Source of the DNA: Rickettsia typhi
GTDB taxonomy: Bacteria > Pseudomonadota > Alphaproteobacteria > Rickettsiales > UBA1997
DNA length: 12,343 bases
Reading direction: 5' to 3'
Assembly: GCA_945903615.1 (NCBI GenBank)
Contig: CAMDOL010000038.1
Location: 1 to 12,343 of the forward strand
Positions within the stretch are counted from its first letter, which is position 1. Every line of letters starts with the position of its first letter. The position numbers were made by a program, and so were the translations under genes. This document shows positions 1 to 12,161 of this stretch, in pieces. The notes under the pieces were generated by a model. That model searched no databases. It was not told the DNA's origin and was given only the letters and a program-made list of their open reading frames with translations.

Positions 1-2246
1 ACCACCAATTGTTTTATTTCATCTTCGGTTAGTGTTTTGTAGCGTTCAATCACTTTTATATCCAAATCGGCAATAGCATCTTTTATTTTTTTGCTTAGTT
101 CGGTTTGGTCGTCAATAAGTTTTAAATAAGCCTTTAAAACTTTTATTTCTTCAGCATTTTCAAGTGATAATTTTGGTGTATCAATGGCTTTTAATCGCTT
201 TTGCACGCCCACTTTGTTCACCTTATCCAAATCAGCGAAAAAACCCTCTTCAACGCCGTGTTCTTCTTCCAATTCGGTTAGCTGTGTGGCAATGGCTTCT
301 TTATCTGCTTCTAAATGCTCAATGGCTTTTTTCTCCGTTAAAAAATAGCGATCAATCACCAAGGTTTTTGGCAATAAATCACAATCCCAAATAGTGGCTT
401 GTTTGGTTTGTTTTGTAATGCCAAGCTCTGCCCTCCAGCCGTCAACGGCAATCAAATAGCAATCATCTTGCATTACATCATTCCAATAATTCATTAAATG
501 CTGATAAACATCATATTTGTCCATCAGGGCTTTGCCTGTGTAGGCAATTAAGATATCTTCTGAAATGCAAAAAATGGTTTGTTTTGGTTTTATGCCAATA
601 GTTAGCGCTTTTAAAGTTTTGGTGTTTCGTATTTTCCAATCAGCAAATAAGGAGTCCATTTGGGCACTAAAACTCACAAATTCGGGGTGCGAAAAAATTT
701 CGTTTTTTAATTGCGAATGATCAATATTTAGCTGCGAATAGTTTTTGCGACCATCTTTAAATAGGTGTTTTCTAAGGTTAGGATAAGCAGCCCAATATTC
801 TTGCAAAGCGTCAATATCTGCACTTGGAATATCGCCTAATAAATGTGCCTCAATGTCTTGAATGTCTTCAACTTCTCCGCTGTCGATATAGCGCAGAATG
901 TTTAAATTAAAATCATTTTTAGGGTCGCTAATTTCTTCAACACTCACCAATCGGCTATATTTAGGCAGCTCGGTTTGTTTATTAAAAATATCGACAATTT
1001 TGTGAATATCTTGCTCGCGCAAACGGTTTTTGTTGCCGTCTTTGATGTAGCCTTTGCTGGCATCGACCATAAAAATATGCTTGCGCTCACCCGCCCCTTC
1101 TTTGTCCATCACAATAATGCAGGCGGGAATGCCAGTGCCATAAAACAAGTTGGCGGGCAAACCAATAATGCCTTTGATGTAGCCCCGCTCAATAAGGCTT
1201 TGGCGAATTTCAGCCTCGGCATTTCCCCTAAACAATACGCCGTGCGGCAGAATGCAAGCGCCTTTGCCCGTGCTTTTTAATGATTTGATAATGTGCAAGA
1301 GAAAAGCGTAATCGCCATTTTTATCAGGCGGTATTTTGTAAGATGCTTTGCCTGTTTTAGCGCTTTCAATTTCATCTTTTTCAAAGCGACCAAAAAGGTC
1401 GTCTTGTGGATTAAACCCCGTTGCCCAGTTTTTGGAAGAAAATGGCGGATTAGCCACAACAAAGTCGAAGGTTTTTAAATGACCGCTGCTGTCTTTAAAG
1501 AACGGTGCAGAAAGCGTGCTTTGTCCTTTGTGAATTTCAATAGTTGCTTGCCCATGTAAAATCATATTCATACGAGCAAGGGCGGCAGTTGCCACATCTT
1601 TTTCTTGCCCATAAATAGTGCCTTTTCCATCGGCTTCGTCCAAAGCTTTTAAAAGCAGAGAACCCGAACCGCAAGTTGGATCATAAAAAGTGGTGTTATT
1701 AGTGGCATTGTGAATGCTCAAAACCTTTGCCATTACTCGGCTTACCTCGCTTGGTGTATAAAACTGCCCTTTGCTTTTTCCGCTTTCGGTGGCAAAGTTT
1801 TTCATCAAATATTCAAAGGCATCGCCCAAAATATCATCGCCGCCTGCACGGTTTTTACTAAAATCTAGGGCAGGATTTTCAAAAATGGCAATCAGTTTGG
1901 TGAGCGTGTCCTCCATATCTTTTCCCTTGCCCAATTTATCATCGTCTGCAAAGTCAGCAACATCAATAACTCCTATTAAATCATTGGCTTTCGCCAACTC
2001 GCCAATAATGACATTCATTTGATCGCCAATATCCTTATTGCCTTTTAAGGCTTGCATATCTTTAAAACCGCCATTTTCTGGTATTTCAATAATTGCATCA
2101 GGATCGCCCGCATATTTGTCGGAAACATATTTTACAAACAACAATACGAGAATGTAGTCCTTGTATTGGCTTGGATCCATTCCTCCTCTTAACGCATCGC
2201 AACTTGCCCACAAAGAGCTGTATAATTCAGATTTTTTGATTGCCAT
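1..2246 (-). CDS. hsdM: Type I restriction-modification DNA methyltransferase subunit M (HsdM), C-terminus cut by window edge
   Basis: This is the N6-adenine methyltransferase subunit of a type I restriction-modification system. It works with a specificity subunit (HsdS) and a nuclease (HsdR), neither of which is in the window. The frame is open for about 748 codons from an ATG at 2246 to base 1. Visible motifs are the AdoMet-binding motif DPTCGSG at residues 189-195 and the catalytic NPPF at residues 266-269. The N-terminus (MAIKKSELYSSLW...) and the segment LREQDIHKIVD are typical of the family. The C-terminal part is charged and probably coiled-coil, ending near DDQTELSKKIKDAI and TEDEIKQLV, as in the long (roughly 750-800 residue) HsdM type, so only a short tail should be missing. 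The catalytic core is richer in G+C (34/60 at 1081-1140, 33/60 at 1201-1260) than the genes to the right, which may reflect transfer. No Shine-Dalgarno is obvious. The family call is firm. Confidence 0.95.
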   Translation of the reverse strand, partial: MAIKKSELYSSLWASCDALRGGMDPSQYKDYILVLLFVKYVSDKYAGDPDAIIEIPENGGFKDMQALKGNKDIGDQMNVIIGELAKANDLIGVIDVADFADDDKLGKGKDMEDTLTKLIAIFENPALDFSKNRAGGDDILGDAFEYLMKNFATESGKSKGQFYTPSEVSRVMAKVLSIHNATNNTTFYDPTCGSGSLLLKALDEADGKGTIYGQEKDVATAALARMNMILHGQATIEIHKGQSTLSAPFFKDSSGHLKTFDFVVANPPFSSKNWATGFNPQDDLFGRFEKDEIESAKTGKASYKIPPDKNGDYAFLLHIIKSLKSTGKGACILPHGVLFRGNAEAEIRQSLIERGYIKGIIGLPANLFYGTGIPACIIVMDKEGAGERKHIFMVDASKGYIKDGNKNRLREQDIHKIVDIFNKQTELPKYSRLVSVEEISDPKNDFNLNILRYIDSGEVEDIQDIEAHLLGDIPSADIDALQEYWAAYPNLRKHLFKDGRKNYSQLNIDHSQLKNEIFSHPEFVSFSAQMDSLFADWKIRNTKTLKALTIGIKPKQTIFCISEDILIAYTGKALMDKYDVYQHLMNYWNDVMQDDCYLIAVDGWRAELGITKQTKQATIWDCDLLPKTLVIDRYFLTEKKAIEHLEADKEAIATQLTELEEEHGVEEGFFADLDKVNKVGVQKRLKAIDTPKLSLENAEEIKVLKAYLKLIDDQTELSKKIKDAIADLDIKVIERYKTLTEDEIKQLV

Positions 2247-2872: not shown

Positions 2873-2924
2873 GCCTGATCTCAACAATTTGTTAATTAAT
2901 TTAAAAAATAAAATCACGAGAAAT

Positions 2925-4265
2925 ATGAAAAGAAATAATGGAGAACTACCAAAATCAAAAGTAGATATAGAACCAGGAGTAAATAAAAAAGTAAAACAAG
3001 AGAATAAAATAAAGAAGATTACAGATCTTGCTCAACTCCCGCAGCGCATCATCGCCTCAATGATTGGTGCAAAGCGAAATACAAAAGTTATTACAGAAGA
3101 TAATTTCCAAGAATTTTTTAATTTAATAAGCAAGGGCTTAAAAGTTAGAAAAGAAACTCCTCATTTTCAAGATCCACTGAGTAATTTGACCACTTTTTCG
3201 AATTTAGAATCTACGCCTGTGAAAAGGTTGGCAAGCCCTTTGGATGAGGGGGGTTATAACGGCTTGATACTACGGATTAAATCACCTACAGCTTTTTTAG
3301 AATTATTAAAGCGTGATTCTTTCGCTACAAGCGAGGGTCTTCCATCAGAAGATTTTGTAAAATTTCAAAGTTGTTTTGAATCAGTGGAGTTGAGTTTTGA
3401 GGATAAAACAATAAATACAACCGATGATCTGACATTAGAAAACATTATAAAATGTTTTAAGGAATCCAAAGTTTCGCTTAATCTTAATGATAATGAGAAG
3501 CTTAAAGAATCAAATATTGAGAATCTTGTAAGTATAATATCAAAAAATAACAACCTAATTGGTCTTAGTATTGCTAACTGTGATCTTGATGTTAATGACA
3601 TCAAAAGTGTTTTATCGGCGGTAAGCAAGTCTCAAATCAAAAGTCTTGATATTTCTAGTAATTCAGAATTACAAGATGTCGATATGGCTCAATTTCTATC
3701 AGAAAATAAATCCATAGAATACCTAGGTCTAGCTGGGTGTGATTTGACTGATCCACAGATAAAACCTATTTTTGATGCTTTGTTAGAAAATCCAAAAATT
3801 ACCTCATTAGATCTTTCTTGTAATGAATTTTGTGCGGCTTCAACCAAAACTCTTGCAAGTTTTTTATCACGGTCAGATTGCAAATTAAAAAAACTTGCAA
3901 TTCAATACGATCCAGCGGTAATTGAAAATATAGACCTTATAATTGAAGCTCTCCAAACCAACACATCTCTTGAATTTGTAGATTTGTCTGGTTCGGGTGA
4001 GTACTCTCAAATATTAACTGATATGTCCGGTGAATCTGAAGAATTACCTATTATTGATGATATTAAATTTTCAAGCTTAATTGAGGCGTTAAAAGGTAAA
4101 AAATGCAAGATTAAGGAATTTATCTGTGATAACCCTGATCAGCAGACGCAAATCAACAAAGCTATCAAAGACAGGACTGCCAATATTCCAAGTGTCAGCC
4201 CACAAAAATCTCAAGCTCAACAAGTTGACTTTCAAAATACAATTCAACAAAGTAACACTCAATAA
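2925..4265 (+). CDS. Leucine-rich-repeat protein (ribonuclease-inhibitor-like repeats)
   Basis: This is a 446-residue protein with no recognised enzymatic motif. The first 25 or so residues are lysine- and asparagine-rich and polar, with no signal peptide or membrane segment. Residues about 175-360 form roughly five repeats of about 28 residues with the L-x-x-L-x-(I/L)-x-x-(N/C)-x-L spacing of ribonuclease-inhibitor-type repeats (for example LIGLSIANCDL, IKSLDISSNSEL, IEYLGLAGCDL, ITSLDLSCNEF, LEFVDLSGS). The tail is glutamine- and serine-rich. Such repeats form a curved protein-binding scaffold and are common in effectors of host-associated bacteria. Effector function is inferred only; no secretion signal can be read. 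An in-frame TTG at 2889 would add 12 residues, but the ATG at 2925 is preferred because it starts a typical MKRNN terminus. Upstream RBS is weak. A hairpin follows the stop. Confidence 0.85.
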   Translation: MKRNNGELPKSKVDIEPGVNKKVKQENKIKKITDLAQLPQRIIASMIGAKRNTKVITEDNFQEFFNLISKGLKVRKETPHFQDPLSNLTTFSNLESTPVKRLASPLDEGGYNGLILRIKSPTAFLELLKRDSFATSEGLPSEDFVKFQSCFESVELSFEDKTINTTDDLTLENIIKCFKESKVSLNLNDNEKLKESNIENLVSIISKNNNLIGLSIANCDLDVNDIKSVLSAVSKSQIKSLDISSNSELQDVDMAQFLSENKSIEYLGLAGCDLTDPQIKPIFDALLENPKITSLDLSCNEFCAASTKTLASFLSRSDCKLKKLAIQYDPAVIENIDLIIEALQTNTSLEFVDLSGSGEYSQILTDMSGESEELPIIDDIKFSSLIEALKGKKCKIKEFICDNPDQQTQINKAIKDRTANIPSVSPQKSQAQQVDFQNTIQQSNTQ

Positions 4266-4273
4266 CTATCCAA

Positions 4274-4402
4274 ATGGGGATTGACTTACTCAATCTCCAT
4301 CTCATTTTATACCAAAGTTCTGGCGAAAAAGAAAATTATCTTGATAATTTCAATAGAATCGCAGTGCAGATAAAAGAAATTTCTGCCAAAAAAACAATGT
4401 GA
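4274..4402 (+). other. Possible 42-codon open frame or gene remnant
   Basis: A frame from ATG 4274 to TGA 4400-4402 encodes a peptide whose last part (NYLDNFNRIAVQIKEIS) looks amphipathic and protein-like rather than random. It overlaps the candidate terminator of the leucine-rich-repeat gene and ends 8 bases before the ATG of the aminotransferase, so it could be a coupled leader or the stump of a lost gene. No family is recognised and no ribosome-binding site is clear. Confidence 0.18.
4276..4298 (+). terminator. Candidate terminator after the leucine-rich-repeat gene
   Basis: GGGGATTGA (4276-4284) pairs with TCAATCTCC (4290-4298) across a 5-base loop. The stem is nine base pairs with one G-T wobble, ten bases after the stop codon. 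The trailing T run is poor (CATTTTAT at 4304-4311), so termination may be partial. Confidence 0.4.
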
Positions 4403-4410
4403 TAACAAAA

Positions 4411-5316
4411 ATGGAAAGAGTTAGCTTTATAAACGGAAAATTTTTACCACACAGTCAATGCTTTGTGCACATTGAAGATCGTGGATTTCAAATGGCTGAC
4501 GGAGTTTATGAGGTGATTCTATTGAAGAATAATAAATTGATTGATTGTGATGAGCATTTACAAAGACTATTTCGCTCGCTTTCTGAATTAAAAATTCAAT
4601 TTTCTCAAACCAAAGAGCAGTTAGAAAAAATTATTTTAGAACTATTTGCCAAAAATAATTTGTTTGATGGTTCAGTTTATTTGCAAATCACCAGGGGCGT
4701 TGCCCATCGTCAGCAAGGTCTTCCTCACAATTGCCCCCCAACAATTACCGCCACAGTTTCTCCGTTAAAAAATATTGATGGCATTGGTTTATCCGTAATC
4801 ACTCACCCAGATATTCGCTGGCAAAGATGCGATATCAAATCAATTTCGCTTTTAGCTAGCTCATGGATTCGCCAAAAGGCTTTTGATTTGAAGGTTGATG
4901 ATGCAATTTTAGTTCGAGATGAATGTGGATCTCCACAAGATTTATCCTTTGGAGGGGTGCAGCAAGTTCTCCTTGAAAATAAAGCAACATACCAAAGCTA
5001 TGTAACTGAAGCAACTTTTGCTAATGTTTTTGTTGTGGATAAAAAAAATACTTTAATCACTCATCCATCTGACAATTTTGTTCTGTGCGGCATTACCCGC
5101 AATAGAATAATTGACTTAGCCAAAAGAAATGGCATTGAAGTTTTAGAAAGAAAATTTACGGTTGCAGAAATGCTTGCCGCTAAAGAAGTTTTTTTATCAA
5201 GCACAACTTTGCTGATTCGCCCAGTTATCAAGATTGATGGGCATATTATTGGCGATGGACATTTTGGTCAAACAAGTCAAAAACTTTTGGATTTATACAA
5301 AAACTTTATAAATTAA
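4411..5316 (+). CDS. Class IV aminotransferase, D-amino-acid transaminase type
   Basis: This is a PLP-dependent fold-type IV enzyme, most like D-amino-acid (D-alanine) transaminase. That enzyme swaps the amino group between D-alanine and 2-oxoglutarate and so links pyruvate to D-amino acids for peptidoglycan. Seen in the sequence: the N-terminal DRGFQMADGVYEVI motif, catalytic lysine K143 in DIKSISLL, the phosphate-binding region YVTEATFANVFVV, then THPSDNFVLCGITR and the late FLSSTTLLIRPV segment. The ATG at 4411 is preferred over an in-frame GTG at 4399 and gives 301 residues, against about 280-290 for the family. The excess is explained by residues 171-196, a stretch between the AILVRD strand and YVTEA that I do not expect in this family. 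Branched-chain aminotransferase or aminodeoxychorismate lyase are less likely alternatives. The gene ends 3 bases before the first prepilin-like gene and probably shares its transcript. Confidence 0.85.
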   Translation: MERVSFINGKFLPHSQCFVHIEDRGFQMADGVYEVILLKNNKLIDCDEHLQRLFRSLSELKIQFSQTKEQLEKIILELFAKNNLFDGSVYLQITRGVAHRQQGLPHNCPPTITATVSPLKNIDGIGLSVITHPDIRWQRCDIKSISLLASSWIRQKAFDLKVDDAILVRDECGSPQDLSFGGVQQVLLENKATYQSYVTEATFANVFVVDKKNTLITHPSDNFVLCGITRNRIIDLAKRNGIEVLERKFTVAEMLAAKEVFLSSTTLLIRPVIKIDGHIIGDGHFGQTSQKLLDLYKNFIN

Positions 5317-5319
5317 TTA

Positions 5320-6198
5320 GTGAAAAAATATCGCCCAAGAACAGCATTCTCGATGATTGAACTTTCAATTGTGGCGGTGATTATTTCAATATTGGTTGGC
5401 ACCATTATTACCGCCAGCAGAATCTCCGCGAATGCCACATTAAACACCGCTCAATCCCTAACTGTATCTTCTCCAGTCAATGATATTGATGGTTTAGCTT
5501 TGTGGTTAGAAACCACAATGCCAAAAAGTTTTGACGATTTATCAGCTGATGATGGCAAGGCAATTGCCACTTGGTATGATTTGAGCGCTAATAAAAATAA
5601 TGCCGTTAATGCCGTTACCGGATCAGCACCAACCTACACCGCCAATGTTATCAATGGCTTGCCAGTTGTAAGATTTAATGGCTCAAGTAATTTTCTTACT
5701 TTTGATGGCTCTCCTCTTGTCAGCAGCAACTATACAATTTTTGCAGTCACAACCCGAAGAAGTGATAAGGATAATAACGCAATTCTTGGTGGAACAGAAG
5801 TTGGCTGCAATTATTGTAATTTGCGTATAGGATATTTTATCAATGGTAGTCCGCGATTTAGATTTGCACATTATAACGACGGAACTTCTGCAACTGATTA
5901 TATTGATACCGATATCTCGGCTTATGTTAGCTCTATTTTTGAAGTCAGCACTATGTCATTTGATTCAAGTTCAGGAAAAATATATTATAAAAATGGCGCT
6001 ACAATAGCATCGGTTACAACCGCCGCAGCAAAAACTGTTCTGGCAAGTTGGGGTGGTTCTGCGGTCGGAAGATCAGAAGCTTTTTATTTTAATGGTGATA
6101 TTGCTGAAATTATTATCTTCACTAAGTCTTTGAGCTTTACTGAGAGAAAAGATGTTGAACAATATTTAGGGAAAAAATGGGGGATAACCATATCTTAA
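5320..6198 (+). CDS. Prepilin-like protein with C-terminal LamG-like domain, copy 1
   Basis: This is a 292-residue protein with a short basic leader MKKYRPRTA, a predicted prepilin-peptidase cut after A9, and a mature start FSMIE with the conserved glutamate at position 5. A hydrophobic helix runs to about residue 30. The rest is a beta-rich domain of LamG/concanavalin-A-like type, recognised from WLETTMPKSF, PTYTANVINGLPVVRFNG and the closing IAEIIIF-x-x-x-L-S-x-x-E-R-K-D-V-x-x-Y-L and KWGITIS. Such a protein would be anchored in the inner membrane and built into a pilus or pseudopilus with the lectin-like domain exposed. Carbohydrate binding is an inference from the fold. The residue before the cut is Ala, not the usual Gly. 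The start is GTG; the next in-frame ATG (codon 12) would destroy the leader. A C-x-x-C pair (GCNYC) is present. It sits 3 bases after the aminotransferase stop. Confidence 0.88.
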   Translation: MKKYRPRTAFSMIELSIVAVIISILVGTIITASRISANATLNTAQSLTVSSPVNDIDGLALWLETTMPKSFDDLSADDGKAIATWYDLSANKNNAVNAVTGSAPTYTANVINGLPVVRFNGSSNFLTFDGSPLVSSNYTIFAVTTRRSDKDNNAILGGTEVGCNYCNLRIGYFINGSPRFRFAHYNDGTSATDYIDTDISAYVSSIFEVSTMSFDSSSGKIYYKNGATIASVTTAAAKTVLASWGGSAVGRSEAFYFNGDIAEIIIFTKSLSFTERKDVEQYLGKKWGITIS

Positions 6199-6253
6199 AA
6201 TGAATTATAAAAAAAATTTGAATCCAAAATTAGAGCAAGGGAAATTGGGCCAA
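6172..6253 (+). repeat. 82-base junction repeat, first copy
   Basis: This segment spans the end of prepilin copy 1 and the start of copy 2. It matches 7966-8047 at 77 of 82 positions by hand alignment, and its first 39 bases (6172-6210) are identical. It covers the last codons (KKWGITIS), the stop, the single-base gap, the ATG and the leader of the next gene. It marks a duplication or gene conversion within the array. Confidence 0.85.
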
Positions 6254-7117
6254 AGGAAAGTAGGCCAAGGAAAATTAGGATTTTCACTTTTAGAACTTTC
6301 TATCGTTCTTATTATAATTTCGTTGTTAATGGTAGCAGTGATAAAGGGTAGTGATTTGATTGGTCAAGCAAAATTAGCTGCGGCTGGACAACTAACAGTT
6401 GCATCTCCAGTATTGAATATAAAGGGATTGTTAATGTGGTATGAAACAACATTATCCAAAAGTTTTATAGATTCAGAAGTTAAGGATAACAGCCTGATTA
6501 GCACTTGGTATGATATAGCCAACCCACCGAGCACCACCAAAAATATGCTGCAAACAACGCCAGCAAATCAACCTACATATAAATCCGGCGCGATAAATGA
6601 TCTTCCTGCACTTTATTTTGATGGAACAAGCGATTATATGGTCAATGCCACCAGTTCAATTGATACCAACATCCTTAGCCCCCAGAGTCGAAATACTATT
6701 TTTATAGTGATGAGATATATAAGCGGAACAGTGATTTTTCAAATTCAAAATTCGATTACCAATAGGATTAGCCTAGAAAATAGCGCCGGATCTGTTAGAT
6801 GGGATTTTCCAAACAGCACTGGAGGGGGATTAGTTGGAGCATCAAATATGTTGCAAAAATCAATAATTTTAACTCTTGATAAAAACAGCACTACTCAATC
6901 AATATTTATTAATGGAGCAATTGATAATTCACAAAGCAACACACTAACACTGACACCCTTCATATCAAATATAACAATAGCCGCAGATACTAATGGAGCT
7001 CTATTTTCTCAAATGTATATATCCGAGCTAATAATCTATGATCGCTCTTTGTCAACCCAAGAAAGAAAAGATGTTGAGCGTTATTTGGGAAGAAAATACA
7101 ACATTATCGTTCCATAA
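6200..7117 (+). CDS. Prepilin-like protein with C-terminal LamG-like domain, copy 2
   Basis: This is a 305-residue paralogue of the preceding gene. The leader is 27 residues, starting MNYKKNLNPKL and followed by three degenerate five-residue units (EQGKL, GQRKV, GQGKL). It then has the canonical G27-F28-S-L-L-E32 cleavage and methylation site and a hydrophobic helix. The C-terminal domain keeps the family marks: MWYETTLSKSF, TWYD, PTYKSGAINDLPALYFDG, then SELIIYDRSLSTQERKDVERYLG near the end. It ends in KYNIIVP, unlike the KWGIT(I) ending of the other three, and has no cysteine. It starts one base after the stop of copy 1 with no separate ribosome-binding site visible, so translation is probably coupled. 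The expected location is the inner membrane or a pilus fibre; no assembly ATPase, platform or prepilin peptidase gene is in the window. The lectin role is inferred. Confidence 0.88.
   Translation: MNYKKNLNPKLEQGKLGQRKVGQGKLGFSLLELSIVLIIISLLMVAVIKGSDLIGQAKLAAAGQLTVASPVLNIKGLLMWYETTLSKSFIDSEVKDNSLISTWYDIANPPSTTKNMLQTTPANQPTYKSGAINDLPALYFDGTSDYMVNATSSIDTNILSPQSRNTIFIVMRYISGTVIFQIQNSITNRISLENSAGSVRWDFPNSTGGGLVGASNMLQKSIILTLDKNSTTQSIFINGAIDNSQSNTLTLTPFISNITIAADTNGALFSQMYISELIIYDRSLSTQERKDVERYLGRKYNIIVP
6233..6277 (+). repeat. Three degenerate 15-base tandem units in the leader of copy 2
   Basis: Codons 12-26 read EQGKL-GQRKV-GQGKL. These are the same units found six times in copy 4 but more diverged. 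The repeat keeps frame and lies wholly before the predicted prepilin cut. Confidence 0.75.
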
Positions 7118-7119
7118 AA

Positions 7120-7992
7120 ATGTATAAAAAAATTAGAAAAGGTTTTTCACTACTTGAGATTTCCATCGTTATCGTTGTCTTTGCTCTTTTGGCACTTGGT
7201 GTAATGCAAGGTGGAGAATTAGTCAGAAAATCCAAAATCACTTCCGCGCAAATGTTAACCAAATCTTCACTGATTGGAAAAATGGATAGTTTGGTTTTGT
7301 GGCTAGAAACCACAATGCCCAACAGCTTTGATGATACTGAAGAAGTTGATGGCGGAAAAATTAGCACTTGGTACGACACCAGCAATACCAAAATCACCCC
7401 AGTTAATGCCCTTCAAACTAACGCTACTAATAAACCAACTTATACAACCAATGCTATTAATGGCTTGCCCGCTTTAAAATTTATCAGCTCCAATAGCACC
7501 TATATGTCGGTTGCCAGCGGCTTTGATAATAACGCTGATACCGTAACGCTGTTTTTAGTTTGGCAACCAACAACAGCGGCTGGAGCAGAAAATGATTTGC
7601 TAGAAAAATGGGCTGGAAGCGGACCCTACCCATATGCTTTAAGATCAACAACAACTTATTATTCCAAATCATCTGACGGAACAAATAATCCTGGCCCAAA
7701 TAGCACAACATCCAAAAGATCTGGAGTTCCTCATATAATTTCAGCACGAAAAATTAAAAGTGGTGCGATGAATTTGTGGGTCAATGGCTCTGCCGAAGGT
7801 GGCACGGTTACTGATAACACAGGAACCAGCTTTAATAATGCTAATCTTTTTATAGGTTGCAGAGGAAATTTAACTCAATTCACAGATGGTTATATTGGCG
7901 AAGCAATTATTTTTGATAGAGCTTTGAGCGACCAAGAAATAGCAGATATTCATAGATATCTGAGCAAAAAATGGGGGATAACCATATCTTAA
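7120..7992 (+). CDS. Prepilin-like protein with C-terminal LamG-like domain, copy 3
   Basis: This 290-residue paralogue has the shortest leader of the array (MYKKIRKG, 8 residues), followed by the canonical G8-F9-S-L-L-E13 site and the hydrophobic segment ISIVIVVFALLALGVM. The globular domain shows LWLETTMPNSFDD, TWYDTSN, PTYTTNAINGLPALKF and the closing IGEAIIFDRALSDQE with YLSKKWGITIS. The closing motif is the clearest match in the array to the typical C-terminal strand of LamG-like domains. One cysteine is present (IGCRG). It starts two bases after copy 2. Its first half resembles copy 1 (TTMP-x-SFDD), and its 3' junction is nearly identical to that of copy 1, which supports the view that copies 1-2 and 3-4 are a duplicated pair. 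Confidence 0.88.
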   Translation: MYKKIRKGFSLLEISIVIVVFALLALGVMQGGELVRKSKITSAQMLTKSSLIGKMDSLVLWLETTMPNSFDDTEEVDGGKISTWYDTSNTKITPVNALQTNATNKPTYTTNAINGLPALKFISSNSTYMSVASGFDNNADTVTLFLVWQPTTAAGAENDLLEKWAGSGPYPYALRSTTTYYSKSSDGTNNPGPNSTTSKRSGVPHIISARKIKSGAMNLWVNGSAEGGTVTDNTGTSFNNANLFIGCRGNLTQFTDGYIGEAIIFDRALSDQEIADIHRYLSKKWGITIS

Positions 7993-8047
7993 AATGAATT
8001 ATAACAAAAATTCGAATCCAAAATTGGGTCAAGGGAAATTGGGCCAA
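7966..8047 (+). repeat. 82-base junction repeat, second copy
   Basis: This is the partner of 6172-6253, with the first 39 bases (7966-8004) identical and 77 of 82 matching overall. It spans the end of copy 3 and the leader of copy 4. A shorter 23-base exact repeat links the 3' ends of copies 3 and 4 (7957-7979 and 8921-8943). Confidence 0.85.
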
Positions 8048-8956
8048 GGGAAATTAGGTCTAGGGAAATTAGGTCTAGGGAAATTAGGCCAAGGAAAATT
8101 AGGCCAAGGAAAATTAGGATTTTCGATCCTAGAACTTTCAATCGCTCTAATCATCATCTCAATTTTGATTATGGCAGTTGCTAAGGGTAATCATATTCTA
8201 AAAAGATCCCGAATTGTCTCCGCTCAATCACTCACCAAATCATCTCCCGTTCTTCGTATGTCCAATTTGGTAGTTTGGTATGAAACTACGATGGATAGCA
8301 GCTTTAGTGAGGCCGATATTGCATCAACCAATATTAATAATTGGTATAATCTAAATCCGTCCATCAAAACTAATAATGCCACCGCTGGCGTTGCTCCCAT
8401 CTACACGAAGAACAGCATTAACAATCTTCCATCTCTATTATTTAATGGCTCAACTAGCTATTTAACTTTTGATGGCACATCAATTATCAATAGAGATTAT
8501 ACAGCGATTGTGGTTGAGCAAAGACTAGGAAGCGGTAGTGATAGATATTTTATTTCTAGTAACCCAGCTAACAGCAACCAAAGTTTAACTTTAGGATATA
8601 GAACCAATACCCAAATAACTTTTGCCCAAGGTGACAATGGCTACAACATTGCAATACCAGGATACCAGTCGCCATCACCAAGAATTCATATTTTTCGTTT
8701 TAGCTCATCACTTGGCAAAAACTATTATCTAAATGGATCCGGACCACAAAATCTTGTTGCTTGCTGCGGCAGCACTCCAGTTCCAACGCAAGGATTAACT
8801 GATTATCCTAACGCTCAAATTGCCAGATACGCAACCACCAACTACTACTTTGGAAATATTGGCGAGATCATCATTTTCAACAAATATATCAATGATGACG
8901 AAATGAATGACATTAAATTATATCTGAGCAAAAAATGGGGGATTACCATCACTTAA
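7994..8956 (+). CDS. Prepilin-like protein with C-terminal LamG-like domain, copy 4 (long repeat leader)
   Basis: This is the longest paralogue, 320 residues. Its leader is 42 residues, against about 5-25 in ordinary prepilins: MNYNKNSNPKL, then six five-residue units G-(Q/L)-G-K-L, then the canonical G42-F43-S-I-L-E47 site and a hydrophobic helix. The C-terminal domain shows VWYETTMDSSF, NWYNLN, PIYTKNSINNLPSLLFNG, then IGEIIIFNKYINDDE and YLSKKWGITIT. An adjacent Cys-Cys pair (VACCGS) could form a vicinal disulphide or contribute to a bond. It starts one base after copy 3 and is the last gene of the apparent operon. If prepilin peptidase acts normally, all copies yield mature proteins with the same type of N-terminus, so the leader repeats affect only the precursor. 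Confidence 0.88.
   Translation: MNYNKNSNPKLGQGKLGQGKLGLGKLGLGKLGQGKLGQGKLGFSILELSIALIIISILIMAVAKGNHILKRSRIVSAQSLTKSSPVLRMSNLVVWYETTMDSSFSEADIASTNINNWYNLNPSIKTNNATAGVAPIYTKNSINNLPSLLFNGSTSYLTFDGTSIINRDYTAIVVEQRLGSGSDRYFISSNPANSNQSLTLGYRTNTQITFAQGDNGYNIAIPGYQSPSPRIHIFRFSSSLGKNYYLNGSGPQNLVACCGSTPVPTQGLTDYPNAQIARYATTNYYFGNIGEIIIFNKYINDDEMNDIKLYLSKKWGITIT
8027..8116 (+). repeat. Six perfect-length 15-base tandem repeats in the prepilin leader of copy 4
   Basis: Codons 12-41 are six units of G-(Q/L)-G-K-L with no indels. Units 3 and 4 (GGTCTAGGGAAATTA) are identical, as are units 5 and 6 (GGCCAAGGAAAATTA). Near-identity of neighbours indicates recent slippage expansion. Because the unit is 15 bases, copy-number change never shifts the frame. 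Confidence 0.92.
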
Positions 8957-9052: not shown

Positions 9053-9433
9053 ATGAGCCAAATCAGCGAAATCGTCGAACTATCTGAACGCATTACTTCC
9101 GATTCAAATCTTCTAGTCCAAAAAGTTGCAGGAATTAATTTTCTTGGCGGCGGTGTTGATCCATTTGTTTTTGGATTAACCGCTTTTGTCTTAGCTTGTT
9201 TTATTGGCTATTTTGTAGTTTGGAAAGTAACCCCCGCTTTACACACACCTTTGATGTCAGTAACCAACGCAATTTCAGGAGTCATTTTGATTGGAGCAAT
9301 TATTGCTCTTGGTGCCGCGCACTCTTTCTTTATTGGATTTTTCAGCTTTTTGGCAATCGTTCTAGCTTCAATAAATATCTTCGGCGGCTTCGTGGTGACT
9401 TGGAGAATGTTGGAAATGTTCAGAAAGAAATAA
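9053..9433 (+). CDS. pntAB: Proton-translocating NAD(P) transhydrogenase, membrane subunit PntAB
   Basis: This 126-residue membrane protein matches the small membrane part of the transhydrogenase alpha subunit, which in Alphaproteobacteria is a separate gene (PntAA, PntAB, PntB). The enzyme moves hydride from NADH to NADP using the proton gradient at the inner membrane. Seen here: a polar N-terminus of about 35 residues, then hydrophobic segments at about 38-57, 67-87 and 91-116, with the very characteristic [13 protein letters not shown] loop at about 64-76 and the ending [11 protein letters not shown]. The length agrees with the family (about 110-140). The usual partners, PntAA (NAD-binding) upstream and PntB (NADP-binding) downstream, are not next to it: the prepilin array lies before it and a convergent flavoenzyme after it. 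The gene is therefore detached from its complex. No clear ribosome-binding site. Confidence 0.92.
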
Positions 9434-9488: not shown

Positions 9489-10895
9489 TTATTTCCCCGT
9501 CATAATTATATCCACCAACTCTTTGATAGTTGGCACAAATCCATTATCATAGAATGGATCAGTTGAAAAACGATAAGCATTGTGCCCAGCAAACATTAAT
9601 TGGTTTTCAATATCAATTCCGTTGCGAACTTCTTGCAAAGTTTTTTGAATACAAAAACTTCTTGGATCAGCTTTTTTGCCATTGTTATAATTAGTTTCTG
9701 GCATTTGTGACCAGTTGCTAAAACGACACTGGCTCAGACATCCCATACAATTAATTTGATCAGTTAAAATTTGTTGAGCTTTTGATTTATCAACAAACAT
9801 CAAGGTTTCATCTGGTGTTTTCATTCCCTCATCAAAGCCATTTTTAACCCAATCATTAACTTTGATTTTGTCTTCTGGCTTAACATAAACAACTCGACCC
9901 CTTTGCCCGAAAGGAATTTCGGCAGCAAAAACACCTTCTGCCTTAGAACGATACTCAACTTGTCTTAATTCGCGACCTTGCAATTCTTTGATAAAGTTAT
10001 TTTCAACCGCAGAAGAATAAAAACCAGTTGGACTAAAACGGTTTAGATAAACATCGCCTGATTTTAAGGTTAGAAGTCTTTTTTTCCAAGAATCAGAAAT
10101 TGGATATTCTTTAGTTAAAAGTGGACGAGTTCCAAATTGAAAAACGATTGGCCCAATTTCAGGATTATCTAACCAACCTTCATATTCCTCAATGTTCCAA
10201 ACGCCGCCAGCCATAATTATTGGCACCTCATTCAAACCAACTGAGTTCATAAAAGTTCTAATTTCAGCAACTCTTGGATATGGATCTTGAAAAACTTTTG
10301 GATCTTCCGCATTTGACAAACCATTGTGACCACCCGCTTTCCACGGACATTCATAAACCACACCGCCTAATAAATCGGCTGCTTTTCCGTAACTTCTTTT
10401 CCACAAAGCTCGGAAGGCACGCATTGAAGAGACGATTGGATAATAATAAACTTGATACTTTTGAGCAATTTCTGAAAGGCGATAAGGCATTCCTGCTCCG
10501 CAAGTGATGCCATGGATTAAACCTTTAGTATTTTCCAAGACTCCGTGCAAAATTCGTTCTGCTCCACCCATTTCCCAAAGAACATTCATATGAACCGCAC
10601 CATTACCACCAGATAAATCATGAGCAATTCGAGCTTGAGCAATGCTGCCTTTGATTCCATAATTCACCAACTCTTCGTGTCTTTCTTTTCTGGTTTTGCC
10701 GCTATAAACCACCGGCACCAAATTGCCTTTTTCATCATAATAATCAGCGTTCACACCTGAGAATGTTCCAACCGCGCCAGATTTAGCAAAATGCCCAGCA
10801 GTAATACCAGTAGTCACACCAATGCCTTTACCACCCTCAATGATTGGTAGGCACATTTTATTAGAAACTTTGACACTTTTTATAGCTTTAATCAC
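9489..10895 (-). CDS. Nitronate monooxygenase (2-nitropropane dioxygenase) family flavoprotein with C-terminal cysteine cluster
   Basis: This is an FMN-dependent TIM-barrel oxidoreductase of 468 residues. Family marks are GITCGAGMP at residues 129-137, the flavin-phosphate AGGHNG at 187-192, the strand IIMAGGVWN and the segment QFGTRPLLTKE. Known members oxidise alkyl nitronates, but many relatives have other or unknown substrates, so the reaction is not assured. Ordinary members are about 320-380 residues. This one carries roughly 100 extra C-terminal residues with C383-x2-C386-x3-C390 and C415, a spacing that could bind an iron-sulphur cluster or zinc. The start is GTG at 10895; the first ATG (codon 14) would remove the first barrel strand. 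It converges on pntAB and diverges from the ATPase gene. A perfect 12-base inverted repeat brackets it. Confidence 0.88.
   Translation of the reverse strand: MIKAIKSVKVSNKMCLPIIEGGKGIGVTTGITAGHFAKSGAVGTFSGVNADYYDEKGNLVPVVYSGKTRKERHEELVNYGIKGSIAQARIAHDLSGGNGAVHMNVLWEMGGAERILHGVLENTKGLIHGITCGAGMPYRLSEIAQKYQVYYYPIVSSMRAFRALWKRSYGKAADLLGGVVYECPWKAGGHNGLSNAEDPKVFQDPYPRVAEIRTFMNSVGLNEVPIIMAGGVWNIEEYEGWLDNPEIGPIVFQFGTRPLLTKEYPISDSWKKRLLTLKSGDVYLNRFSPTGFYSSAVENNFIKELQGRELRQVEYRSKAEGVFAAEIPFGQRGRVVYVKPEDKIKVNDWVKNGFDEGMKTPDETLMFVDKSKAQQILTDQINCMGCLSQCRFSNWSQMPETNYNNGKKADPRSFCIQKTLQEVRNGIDIENQLMFAGHNAYRFSTDPFYDNGFVPTIKELVDIIMTGK
9490..9501. repeat. Left arm of a 12-base inverted repeat around the flavoenzyme gene
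   Basis: TATTTCCCCGTC, overlapping the last codons of the flavoenzyme gene, is the exact reverse complement of 10919-10930, which lies 23 bases upstream of its start. The two arms bracket the gene with about 1.4 kb between them. Confidence 0.6.
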
Positions 10896-11063: not shown

Positions 11064-12161
11064 ATGTTAAAAAACATAAAAATCCAAAATTATCGCGGAA
11101 TTAAAGATTTGGAAATTAAAGATTTTAAGAGAATTAATTTGTTGGTTGGTGATAATAATTCCGGAAAGACAAGTGCCCTAGAAGCTATATTTGCTCTTTT
11201 ATCGCCAACTAATCCACTTGCTCTTGCAAATATAATTAATAAAAAAAGAGGGGAAATTCTAATAAATGCAAAATCCGGTCAAGAAACTTTAGATATTTTA
11301 TCGGATGATTTTTGGAACGGAATGACCAGCATTTTTAATGAAAAAAACACCAAAAATGCCATTAGTATTTCTTCAGAAGACAAAACCAATAAATCAAAAT
11401 CTAAAAAAGCAGTTTTAGAAATTTCCTACAATCAAGATTCTAAATCTTTTGTTAAAAGCAATTTAATTGCTGAATCGCAAAAAAACTTTATTTTCAACTT
11501 TACTAGCGAAGATGGTAAAAAAACCGAAACTGGATTTTCCAATGTTAGCGGCAATCACTTTTCTGACCCCGCAATTAAGAAAATTTTTGGATTAACAGAT
11601 ACTGCTATGTTGTATGCCGAGCCAAAAAGAGCCAACGACATATTTAGATTGCTTGAACAATATTGTTCAAGCCTCAGCAAAAAACAGGAAATATTAAAAA
11701 TATTGCAAAATCTTGAACCAAATTTAACAAGTTTTGATATTAATAACTACATACACTGCTATTTTAAAGGCGTTAATGATGTTAATGATGATTACAAACT
11801 ACCAATTAATCATCTAGGAGATGGCATTAGATCAATATTGGCAACCATTGTTAATATTGCAAAATACAGTGGAGGCGCTTGTTTGCTTGATGAAATTGAA
11901 AATGGTTTGCATTACAAATCACAAAAATTGATGTGGCAACAAATATTTAATGTAAGCAAATCCGCCAATACCCAAATTTTTGCTACTACTCATTCTTATG
12001 AGATGATTAAAAGTCTAGTTGAGCTTTGCGAAGATGGAATAATTGATGAAAAAGAAATTATGCTTTACAGCTTAGATAAGAAAGCTGGGAAAAACTATGT
12101 AAGCACTTTTGATGGCAAATCTCTTGATGGAATGATTAGTAGTGGAGGAGAAGTTAGATAA
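11064..12161 (+). CDS. OLD/RecF-like ABC-type AAA ATPase
   Basis: This 365-residue ATPase begins with the strand pattern IKIQNYRGIKDLEI and Walker A G29-D-N-N-S-G-K-T36, typical of OLD, RecF and AAA_15/AAA_21 proteins. Later come a signature-like HLGDGIRSIL, Walker B CLLDEIENGLH with D276 and E277, and the H-loop ATTHS. Residues about 105-160 are a lysine- and serine-rich insert between the two halves of the ATPase fold. OLD nucleases carry a TOPRIM domain on the same chain; here the protein stops after the ATPase, and a TOPRIM-like protein is encoded by the next gene, overlapping by one base. That layout resembles two-gene ATPase plus TOPRIM anti-phage modules such as PARIS (AriA/AriB). A defence role is inferred from architecture. 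A DNA repair or plasmid-maintenance role is the alternative. Confidence 0.87.
   Translation: MLKNIKIQNYRGIKDLEIKDFKRINLLVGDNNSGKTSALEAIFALLSPTNPLALANIINKKRGEILINAKSGQETLDILSDDFWNGMTSIFNEKNTKNAISISSEDKTNKSKSKKAVLEISYNQDSKSFVKSNLIAESQKNFIFNFTSEDGKKTETGFSNVSGNHFSDPAIKKIFGLTDTAMLYAEPKRANDIFRLLEQYCSSLSKKQEILKILQNLEPNLTSFDINNYIHCYFKGVNDVNDDYKLPINHLGDGIRSILATIVNIAKYSGGACLLDEIENGLHYKSQKLMWQQIFNVSKSANTQIFATTHSYEMIKSLVELCEDGIIDEKEIMLYSLDKKAGKNYVSTFDGKSLDGMISSGGEVR

What the first reader, a model, noticed from the sequence alone, without database searches (positions are those of the whole stretch)
5320..8956. Tandem array of four pseudopilins each fused to a LamG-like lectin domain
Four consecutive genes share a prepilin N-terminus (cut site before F-x-x-x-E plus hydrophobic helix) and a roughly 240-residue beta-rich C-terminal domain with the closing E-(I/L/A)-I-(I/V)-(F/Y)-...-YL-x-(K/R)-K motif. 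Classical minor pilins are smaller and usually present once each. A set of four lectin-tipped paralogues suggests a pilus or pseudopilus with several alternative or jointly used adhesive subunits. In a host-associated bacterium this would be a surface recognition organelle. It may be a poorly described system.
Basis: partly seen in the sequence, partly recalled or inferred. Interest (0 to 1): 0.85.

Follow-up and report, generated by a model that had tools for sequence, protein, structure and literature searches.

The report
Lectin-headed pilins expanded in Rickettsiales
Four neighbouring genes encode pilus-type subunits whose head has a sugar-binding-type (LamG) fold, and related uncultured Rickettsiales carry many such genes, which may be a toolkit for recognising other cells.

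Summary
Four tightly packed genes (5320-8956) each encode a prepilin N-terminus joined to a ~240-residue LamG/ConA-like domain. AlphaFold models of two of them (pLDDT 94, 88) show the helix running straight into a jelly-roll sandwich; Foldseek matches include the lectin minor pilin PilC of Streptococcus sanguinis. Lectin-type modular pilins are thus a known kind. What I met in none of the papers or listings seen is the scale: 23 of 23 related genomes, chosen because they have the family, hold 4-28 matches each (399, fragments included, in 1.0-1.7 Mb); 46 of 343 genomes of the order score strongly; in a class-wide sample only 1 of 385 (the centre genome) shows the full architecture. Most relatives have PilB/PilT-type ATPases, PilC, prepilin peptidase and a secretin; PilY1 was detected in 0 of 44. 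The array slot (Dat - pilins - PntA2) recurs in one relative with five genes, only one of them a likely orthologue. Helix and frame are conserved, the domain's centre is highly variable. Best reading: a birth-and-death repertoire of lectin-headed minor pilins. Filament membership, tip position, glycan binding and host are inferred; the window's own genome is not held.

The parts
4399..5316 (+). Dat: D-amino-acid transaminase-like (class IV aminotransferase), left flank of the array, 3 nt before gene 1, possibly co-transcribed
   Evidence: PF01063 1.3e-41; PRK06680 3.5e-86, below its cut-off; 63% identical gene at the same place in L001
5320..6198 (+). p1: prepilin with LamG-like head (292 aa)
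   Evidence: PF07963 0.0037, under cut-off; aligns with p2-p4; family profile E 2e-91 (p1 is a row of that profile); tree partner P0074, 100/99
6200..7117 (+). p2: prepilin with LamG-like head (305 aa), repeat-bearing leader
   Evidence: PF07963 0.00077 and PF13385 5.4e-4, both under cut-off; TIGR02532 over cut-off; family profile 1.3e-81 (p2 is a row of that profile)
6227..6279 (+). degenerate 15-bp tandem repeat in the p2 leader
   Evidence: TRF 3.5 copies, 76% matches
7120..7992 (+). p3: prepilin with LamG head (290 aa); modelled
   Evidence: PF07963 23.9 and PF13385 36.1 bits, both over cut-off; model pLDDT 94.2, helix 11-49, then sandwich and C-terminal helix 271-285
7994..8956 (+). p4: prepilin with LamG-like head (320 aa), long repeat-bearing leader; modelled
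   Evidence: PF07963 0.0036, under cut-off; TIGR02532 over cut-off; model pLDDT 87.7, same fold, leader of low confidence
8021..8118 (+). 15-bp tandem repeat (KLGQG/KLGLG units) in the p4 leader, directly before the cleavage site; P0061 has two units fewer
   Evidence: TRF 6.5 copies, 91% matches; alignment with P0061
6092..6279 (+). junction block p1|p2, repeated as p3|p4 at 7886-8073 (78% over 188 nt; 46 of 51 identical across stop and start)
9053..9433 (+). PntA2, transhydrogenase alpha subunit 4TM part; right flank of the array
   Evidence: PF12769 5.5e-35; 86% identical gene at the same place in L001

Best explanation
Each of the four genes encodes a minor type IV pilin that ends in a LamG/ConA-type lectin head. 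After prepilin peptidase removes the leader, the conserved N-terminal helix (F1, E5) would insert the subunit into a type IV pilus, most likely at or near the tip, and the jelly roll would be displayed as a ligand-binding head. The array is one locus of a repertoire of such genes maintained by local duplication, divergence and loss in a group of small-genome Rickettsiales; different members would bind different glycans on a eukaryotic host, prey or surface, with PilT-driven retraction pulling the cell in. Shown by sequence or model: prepilin N-terminus, fold of p3 and p4, multiplicity, restriction to part of one order, assembly genes in relatives, conserved frame with variable centre, one kept slot with changed content. 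Inferred: cleavage, assembly into a pilus, tip location, glycan binding, distinct specificities, host recognition.
Against: The window's own genome is not held, so its machinery is unseen. Two of four genes have no PF13385 match and one is below cut-off. A LamG fold does not prove sugar binding: many of the best structural rows are clostridial neurotoxin binding domains and their partners, where the likeness is of fold, and TM-scores are moderate. No separate pilin globular domain is visible in the models, so packing into a filament is not certain. Two of the 177 fetched sequences, P0093 and P0094, keep the LamG part but lack the E5 motif and have another N-terminal hydrophobic stretch; I had left them and P0095 (no N-terminus) out of the 165. 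Among the 23 genomes PilB-type is missing in 3, PilT-type in 3, prepilin peptidase in 4, T2SSF in 1, secretin in 1; incomplete assemblies are a likely but untested reason. In G001 PilB, the platform protein and the secretin score below the cut-offs of their best NCBIfam models. Expression is unknown, and G001 holds copies in pieces. A variable centre could also mean relaxed constraint.
Confidence: 0.58

Rival explanations
1. Pseudopilins of a type II secretion system: the LamG heads act in the periplasm, for example holding secreted glycan-active cargo.
For: Some sources name relatives PulG or GspH family; the platform protein of G001 scores best with GspF (267.5 bits, under cut-off) and its PilB nearly as well with GspE (491 against 510 bits, both under cut-off).
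Against: Matches of the four to GspG (p2) and GspJ (p3) cover the N-terminal helix only, 13.2 and 15.3 bits against cut-offs of 88.85 and 64.85; G001 has PilT over cut-off, and its secretin scores best with MshL, though under cut-off. GspC, GspL and GspM were not searched for.
Confidence: 0.12
2. The LamG pilins are structural: they make up much of the filament (a heteropolymer) and the variable heads are a coat that changes, for example to avoid phage or grazers, with no particular ligand.
For: In G001 only 3 of 19 prepilin N-termini found lie outside the family; highly variable centre.
Against: Two adjacent non-LamG prepilins in G001 (292 and 272 aa) are candidate major pilins; ~240-residue sandwich heads would have to pack; some of the matched folds are carbohydrate-binding modules or lectins.
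Confidence: 0.13
3. Membrane-anchored lectins that use the prepilin signal only for export and anchoring and are not assembled into filaments.
For: No pilin globular head is visible in the models; two relatives, P0093 and P0094, have the LamG part behind another hydrophobic stretch without the pilin motif; in L034 one prepilin N-terminus carries four LamG matches.
Against: E5 is kept in 164 of 165 aligned sequences, a residue kept for subunit packing in filaments (recalled).
Confidence: 0.14

Closest known systems
PilC of Streptococcus sanguinis type 4 pili (7oa8; PMC9934059, passages read)
   Same: Prepilin N-terminus with a ConA-like lectin module, described there as binding a subset of glycans; structural match to both models in Foldseek.
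   Different: A single gene among five pilins of a firmicute; a pilin moiety and an Ig-like module come before the lectin. Here the models show the helix running directly into the sandwich, and there are many paralogues.
Modular pilins with PF13385 (PMC8179133, passages read)
   Same: Same domain order; [quoted passage not shown]
   Different: The passages describe architectures over more than 1,200 proteins; they mention no clade-wide expansion or arrays (only passages were read).
PilC/PilY1 tip adhesins of diderm T4P
   Same: Variable ligand module presented by a pilus carrier (parallel drawn in PMC8179133).
   Different: Not pilins; detected in 0 of 44 relatives (positives elsewhere).
Neisseria pilE/pilS and other variable pilin loci (recalled)
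   Same: Conserved N-terminal helix, variable head, copies in pieces beside intact ones.
   Different: No silent-cassette system was shown here; the intact copies have their own start and leader.

Membership tests
Type IV pilin (class III signal peptide) | Leader ending in G/A, then F, E at +5, hydrophobic stretch | tested here: met
   all four show it; 3 of 4 over the TIGR02532 cut-off, 1 of 4 over PF07963; leaders of p2 and p4 are unusually long (27 and 42 residues)
Modular pilin (PMC8179133 sense) | Pilin N-terminus plus an extra domain that is not specific to T4P | tested here: met
   for p3 and p4; by alignment only for p1 and p2
Modular pilin (PMC8179133 sense) | A globular pilin moiety between helix and module | tested here: inconclusive
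   Models show helix 11-49 (p3) or 45-82 (p4) and then the sandwich; predictions only
LamG_3 / ConA-like lectin (PF13385) | Score over the Pfam cut-off | tested here: inconclusive
   p3 over, p2 under, p1 and p4 not reported at E 0.1; fold agrees for p3 and p4
LamG_3 / ConA-like lectin (PF13385) | Binds carbohydrate | not testable with these tools
   No ligand data
Type IV pilus system | PilB, PilC, PilD, PilT and secretin in the same genome | tested here: inconclusive
   Present in most relatives and all five in G001; the window's own genome is not held
Type IV pilus system | The proteins are found in the filament | not testable with these tools
   Needs an experiment
T2SS pseudopilin (GspG/H/I/J/K) | Full-length match to a pseudopilin model | tested here: not met
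   Only N-terminal matches to GspG and GspJ, 13.2 and 15.3 bits against cut-offs of 88.85 and 64.85; GspH, GspI and GspK not reported at E 0.1
PilY1 tip adhesin | PF05567 domain | tested here: not met
   Not among the Pfam matches of the window proteins at E 0.1

The most novel reading that the evidence does not exclude
A lineage of small-genome Rickettsiales has turned the type IV pilus into a multi-specific recognition organelle: the lectin sandwich sits directly on the pilin helix in place of the usual head, ten or more divergent versions are kept per genome, in slots where copies are born, exchanged at conserved gene junctions and lost, and they stand in for the PilY1 tip adhesin that I did not detect. 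It would be the attachment repertoire that decides which protist or other cell these uncultured bacteria bind.
Probability: 0.33. Interest if true: 0.8.

Novelty: new variant of a known kind. Interest (0 to 1): 0.6.

Why it matters
How host-associated Rickettsiales outside the classical families attach to cells is open. A 2024 study links pili to extracellular attachment in Deianiraea and possibly its relatives, and thinks uncharacterised lineage-specific interaction proteins likely in the less studied families (PMC10847448, passages). A pilin family with a conserved scaffold and variable lectin-type heads, present in many copies in ~1.4-Mb genomes, is a concrete and testable candidate, if this clade proves to be related to those families, which I did not establish. 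It would also show that a lectin can take the place of the pilin head.

Tried and rejected
The genome scan with the 66-row alignment could not run for lack of conserved stretches; a 13-row alignment worked, so that scan rests on one peptide pattern and misses members without it. Of its 53 loci, 10 (L040, L041, L043, L046-L052; Verrucomicrobia, Opitutia, Kiritimatiellae, Brevinematales, Thiotrichaceae and others by title) match only the LamG part and were not counted; L042 gave no match there. The other loci lie in 23 genomes.

Order-wide search: 159 of 343 genomes have some match at E 0.001, but 113 of these have a best E above 1e-40, and many may be generic pilin helices or generic LamG domains. 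At most 7 candidates per genome were scored there, so copy numbers come only. The 399 matches include fragments and helix-only matches: in G001, 23 matches come down to 14 intact genes and 3 in pieces. The class sample scored at most 6 candidates per genome and was drawn evenly, so few genomes of this order are in it.

Idea that the array always sits beside PntA2: rejected. PntA2 was found in 34 of 44 genomes and 30 loci with up to 1.5 kb of flank were read; only G001's has a pilin directly next to it, one more (L112) has one about 550 bp away on the other strand, and in at least three (L100, L109, L110) the contig ends too soon to tell. Idea that p1-p4 are recent duplicates: rejected by the tree (45 rows: 4 of the window, 14 of G001, 27 of the 173 fetched proteins), although junctions p1|p2 and p3|p4 are nearly identical. 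In that tree p4 with the last L001 gene alone has weak support (89/49); the supported group is these two with P0045 (100/98).

PilY1: alone was uninformative, because none of the tool's 14 controls rang; they stayed silent too, but there 2 of my 6 extra genomes were positive. Leader repeat: the exact 23-base pattern is in none of 144 loci. VIA-align rows show the best 50 entries only; 7oa8 is not among the rows shown. The tool gives no order name; 'Rickettsiales' rests on record titles, and titles such as Rhizobium, Rickettsia typhi or Pelagibacterales I take as misnomers because all 23 genomes fall into one order. Aquatic origin was guessed from isolate names and not checked, so it is not claimed. 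Nanohaloarchaeota lead (PMC9563170, passages): secreted LamG proteins, not pilins. PMC9418006 (passages): nothing on pilins.

Literature: no paper in the library holds Rickettsiales, pilin and LamG together. Listings (11 of 11; 15 of 48; 5 of 5; 20 of 394; 15 of 34,624; 5 of 5) showed no title or abstract start on this family. Most subscription papers are not held; the Deianiraea description (10.1038/s41396-019-0433-9) is not held.

Full report
What is in the window. Four ORFs on the + strand, 5320-6198, 6200-7117, 7120-7992 and 7994-8956, follow each other with 1-2 nt between stop and start, 3 nt after a class IV aminotransferase (Dat, 4399-5316) and 96 nt before pntA2 (9053-9433). All four begin with a prepilin signal (F at +1, E at +5) and end with the same E-x-I-I-(F/Y) ... 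YL-x-(K/R)-K motif. LamG_3 is over the Pfam cut-off only in p3, sub-threshold in p2 and unreported in p1 and p4, but all four align over their full length.

Relatives. Gene 3 has 95 homologues, the 66-row profile 659 among 7992 scored candidates. Names, where a source gives one, are prepilin-type, hypothetical, PulG-, GspH- or LamG-like proteins; organisms named are Rickettsiales, Rickettsiaceae, Alphaproteobacteria, Proteobacteria/Pseudomonadota and one Chlamydiae MAG (P0066). A genome scan gave 53 loci, 43 of them not limited to LamG repeats of other phyla, in 23 genomes. In these 23, chosen because they have the family, the profile finds 4-28 matches each, 399 in all, median 16, in 1.0-1.7 Mb. 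In the whole order 159 of 343 genomes match at E 0.001; 46 of 343 have a best E below 1e-40 (my count from the table; all 23 are among them). In 385 genomes sampled from the class, 4 match at E 1e-20; only G001 shows the full architecture, the other three match the LamG part alone. The family therefore looks restricted to part of one order, the Rickettsiales by record titles; I did not place that part among named families.

A close look at G001, the best assembly. It holds 14 intact family members and 3 more in pieces; of 19 prepilin N-termini found at E 0.1, 16 belong to the family (two of them to copies in pieces) and 3 do not (one search read). Two of those three lie side by side (292 and 272 aa) and could be major pilins. 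PilB (best model TIGR02538, under its cut-off), PilT (over cut-off), a GspF/PilC platform protein and a secretin nearest MshL (both under cut-off) and a prepilin peptidase with both A24 domains are present, on different stretches of the genome. Across the 23 genomes: T2SSE family 23; by size and score I sort these into PilB-type in 20 (two as contig-end pieces), PilT-type in 20, and a shorter VirB11-like group in 22; T2SSF 22, prepilin peptidase 19, secretin 22. PilY1 was found in 0 of 44 (44 of the 46 strong genomes) and in 2 of 6 unrelated genomes used as my own control.

The array as a slot. In L001 (G001) the same slot holds Dat, five pilins and PntA2; Dat is 63% and PntA2 86% identical to the window's. 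p4 and the last L001 gene fall, with P0045, in one supported group (100/98) and are each other's clear best match (39%); p1, p2 and p3 group with proteins from elsewhere (P0074, P0019, and P0003/P0006 and others), while neighbouring genes within G001 pair with each other (a1/a2, a3/a4, 684/685, the C3 cluster) (45 rows). So the place is kept while most of its content differs, as local duplication and loss would give. Among 30 PntA2 loci read, no other has a pilin directly adjacent, three of them being too short to tell.

Conserved frame, variable centre. In 165 sequences (the four of the window and 161 of 173 fetched; 12 left out for length, near-identity or a missing or odd N-terminus, listed) the helix has mean entropy 1.64 bits, sandwich strands 2.34, loops 2.61; ten-residue blocks from 151 to 250 lie at 2.8-3.2, while blocks 61-70, 81-90, 111-120, 261-270 and 281-290 lie at 1.3-1.7. 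Seven residues of the sandwich and C-terminal helix (W61, W84, P117, E261, Y280, L281, K284 of p3) and T47 of the helix are the same in 165 of 165, and E5 of the pilin motif is E in 164 with one gap. Among the window's four, helix identity is 32-49%, the C-terminal part 29-60%, the centre 8-25%. A common scaffold with diverging recognition surfaces would look like this; relaxed constraint would look similar, and I could not map the sites on coordinates.

Gene junctions and leader repeats. The p1|p2 and p3|p4 junctions are 46 of 51 identical across stop and start, and 78% over 188 nt, although the bodies belong to different branches; this suggests exchange or conversion at gene ends. The leaders of p2 and p4 contain 15-bp repeats (3.5 and 6.5 copies); with up to two mismatches the unit occurs 11 times in the window, 9 of them in these two leaders, against 1.2 expected. 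A protein (P0061) that otherwise differs from p4 by two substitutions has two 5-residue units fewer, so leader length appears to vary between close relatives. Other leaders with different short repeats before the cleavage site occur (P0076, P0085, P0143, P0163). Effect unknown.

Interpretation. The best reading is a repertoire of lectin-headed minor pilins for attachment. A lectin pilin is a known kind: PilC of S. sanguinis binds glycans, and PF13385 pilins are named among the frequent modular architectures (passages read). New, as far as the searches show (mostly partial listings), are the clade-wide expansion, the direct helix-to-sandwich build and the kept slot with changed content, with PilY1 undetected. 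Two Rickettsiales studies record type 4 pili, one calling the apparatus likely ancestral and present in basal families and the DDG clade; the word pilin does not occur in the main text of either (PMC9352585, PMC10847448; passages).

Limits. No data on expression, cleavage, filament membership or ligand. Assembly gaps affect absences. The genomes were selected through the family. Two fetched relatives have the LamG part without the pilin motif (P0093, P0094), which leaves room for a plain membrane anchor. The window's own machinery is unseen.

Noticed in passing
window 8021-8118 and 6227-6279; P0061, P0076, P0085, P0143, P0163: Short tandem repeats inside prepilin leaders, just before the cleavage site; P0061 differs from p4 by exactly two repeat units and two substitutions, which points to length variation between close relatives.
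   Followed up: partly
L144 (G001 C3:45000-60000), about 52267-54651 of the contig: What look like three LamG pilin copies in pieces between intact ones in a cluster; two of them share a near-identical stretch. Pseudogenes, silent copies or assembly errors.
   Followed up: partly
P0093 and P0094 (proteins, no locus): LamG-part relatives with a hydrophobic N-terminus but without the prepilin F-x-x-x-E motif.
   Followed up: no
L034 6929-12910: In the Rickettsiales record AM-377-L16 one frame has a prepilin N-terminus with four LamG matches (about 1340 residues), and the frame before it a prepilin N-terminus with one full and one partial LamG match (about 655 residues).
   Followed up: no
L006 9980-12097; matches in G020, G002 and G303: Family members lying in open frames of about 657-1265 residues, so perhaps with extra domains; only L006 was seen to extend beyond the head, the others were not inspected.
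   Followed up: no
window 2889-4265: 458-aa protein with weak leucine-rich-repeat similarity (LRR_6 18.9 bits, under cut-off) and a very weak one to a plant-pathogen effector model (15.4 bits against 450).
   Followed up: no
window 3-2246 (-): Type I restriction HsdM-like methylase (242.5 bits against a cut-off of 242.75), running off the window.
   Followed up: no
window 9489-10895 (-): 468-aa protein with a nitronate monooxygenase domain (37.3 bits, over cut-off) and weak FabK similarity, longer than those models.
   Followed up: no
window 11064-12161: AAA ATPase of the AAA_15/AAA_21 kind, with weak sub-threshold similarity to defence ATPases such as PtuA.
   Followed up: no
L142 5544-7308 (G001 C4): Two adjacent non-LamG prepilins of 292 and 272 aa with no Pfam domain over cut-off beyond the N-terminus; candidate major pilins.
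   Followed up: partly
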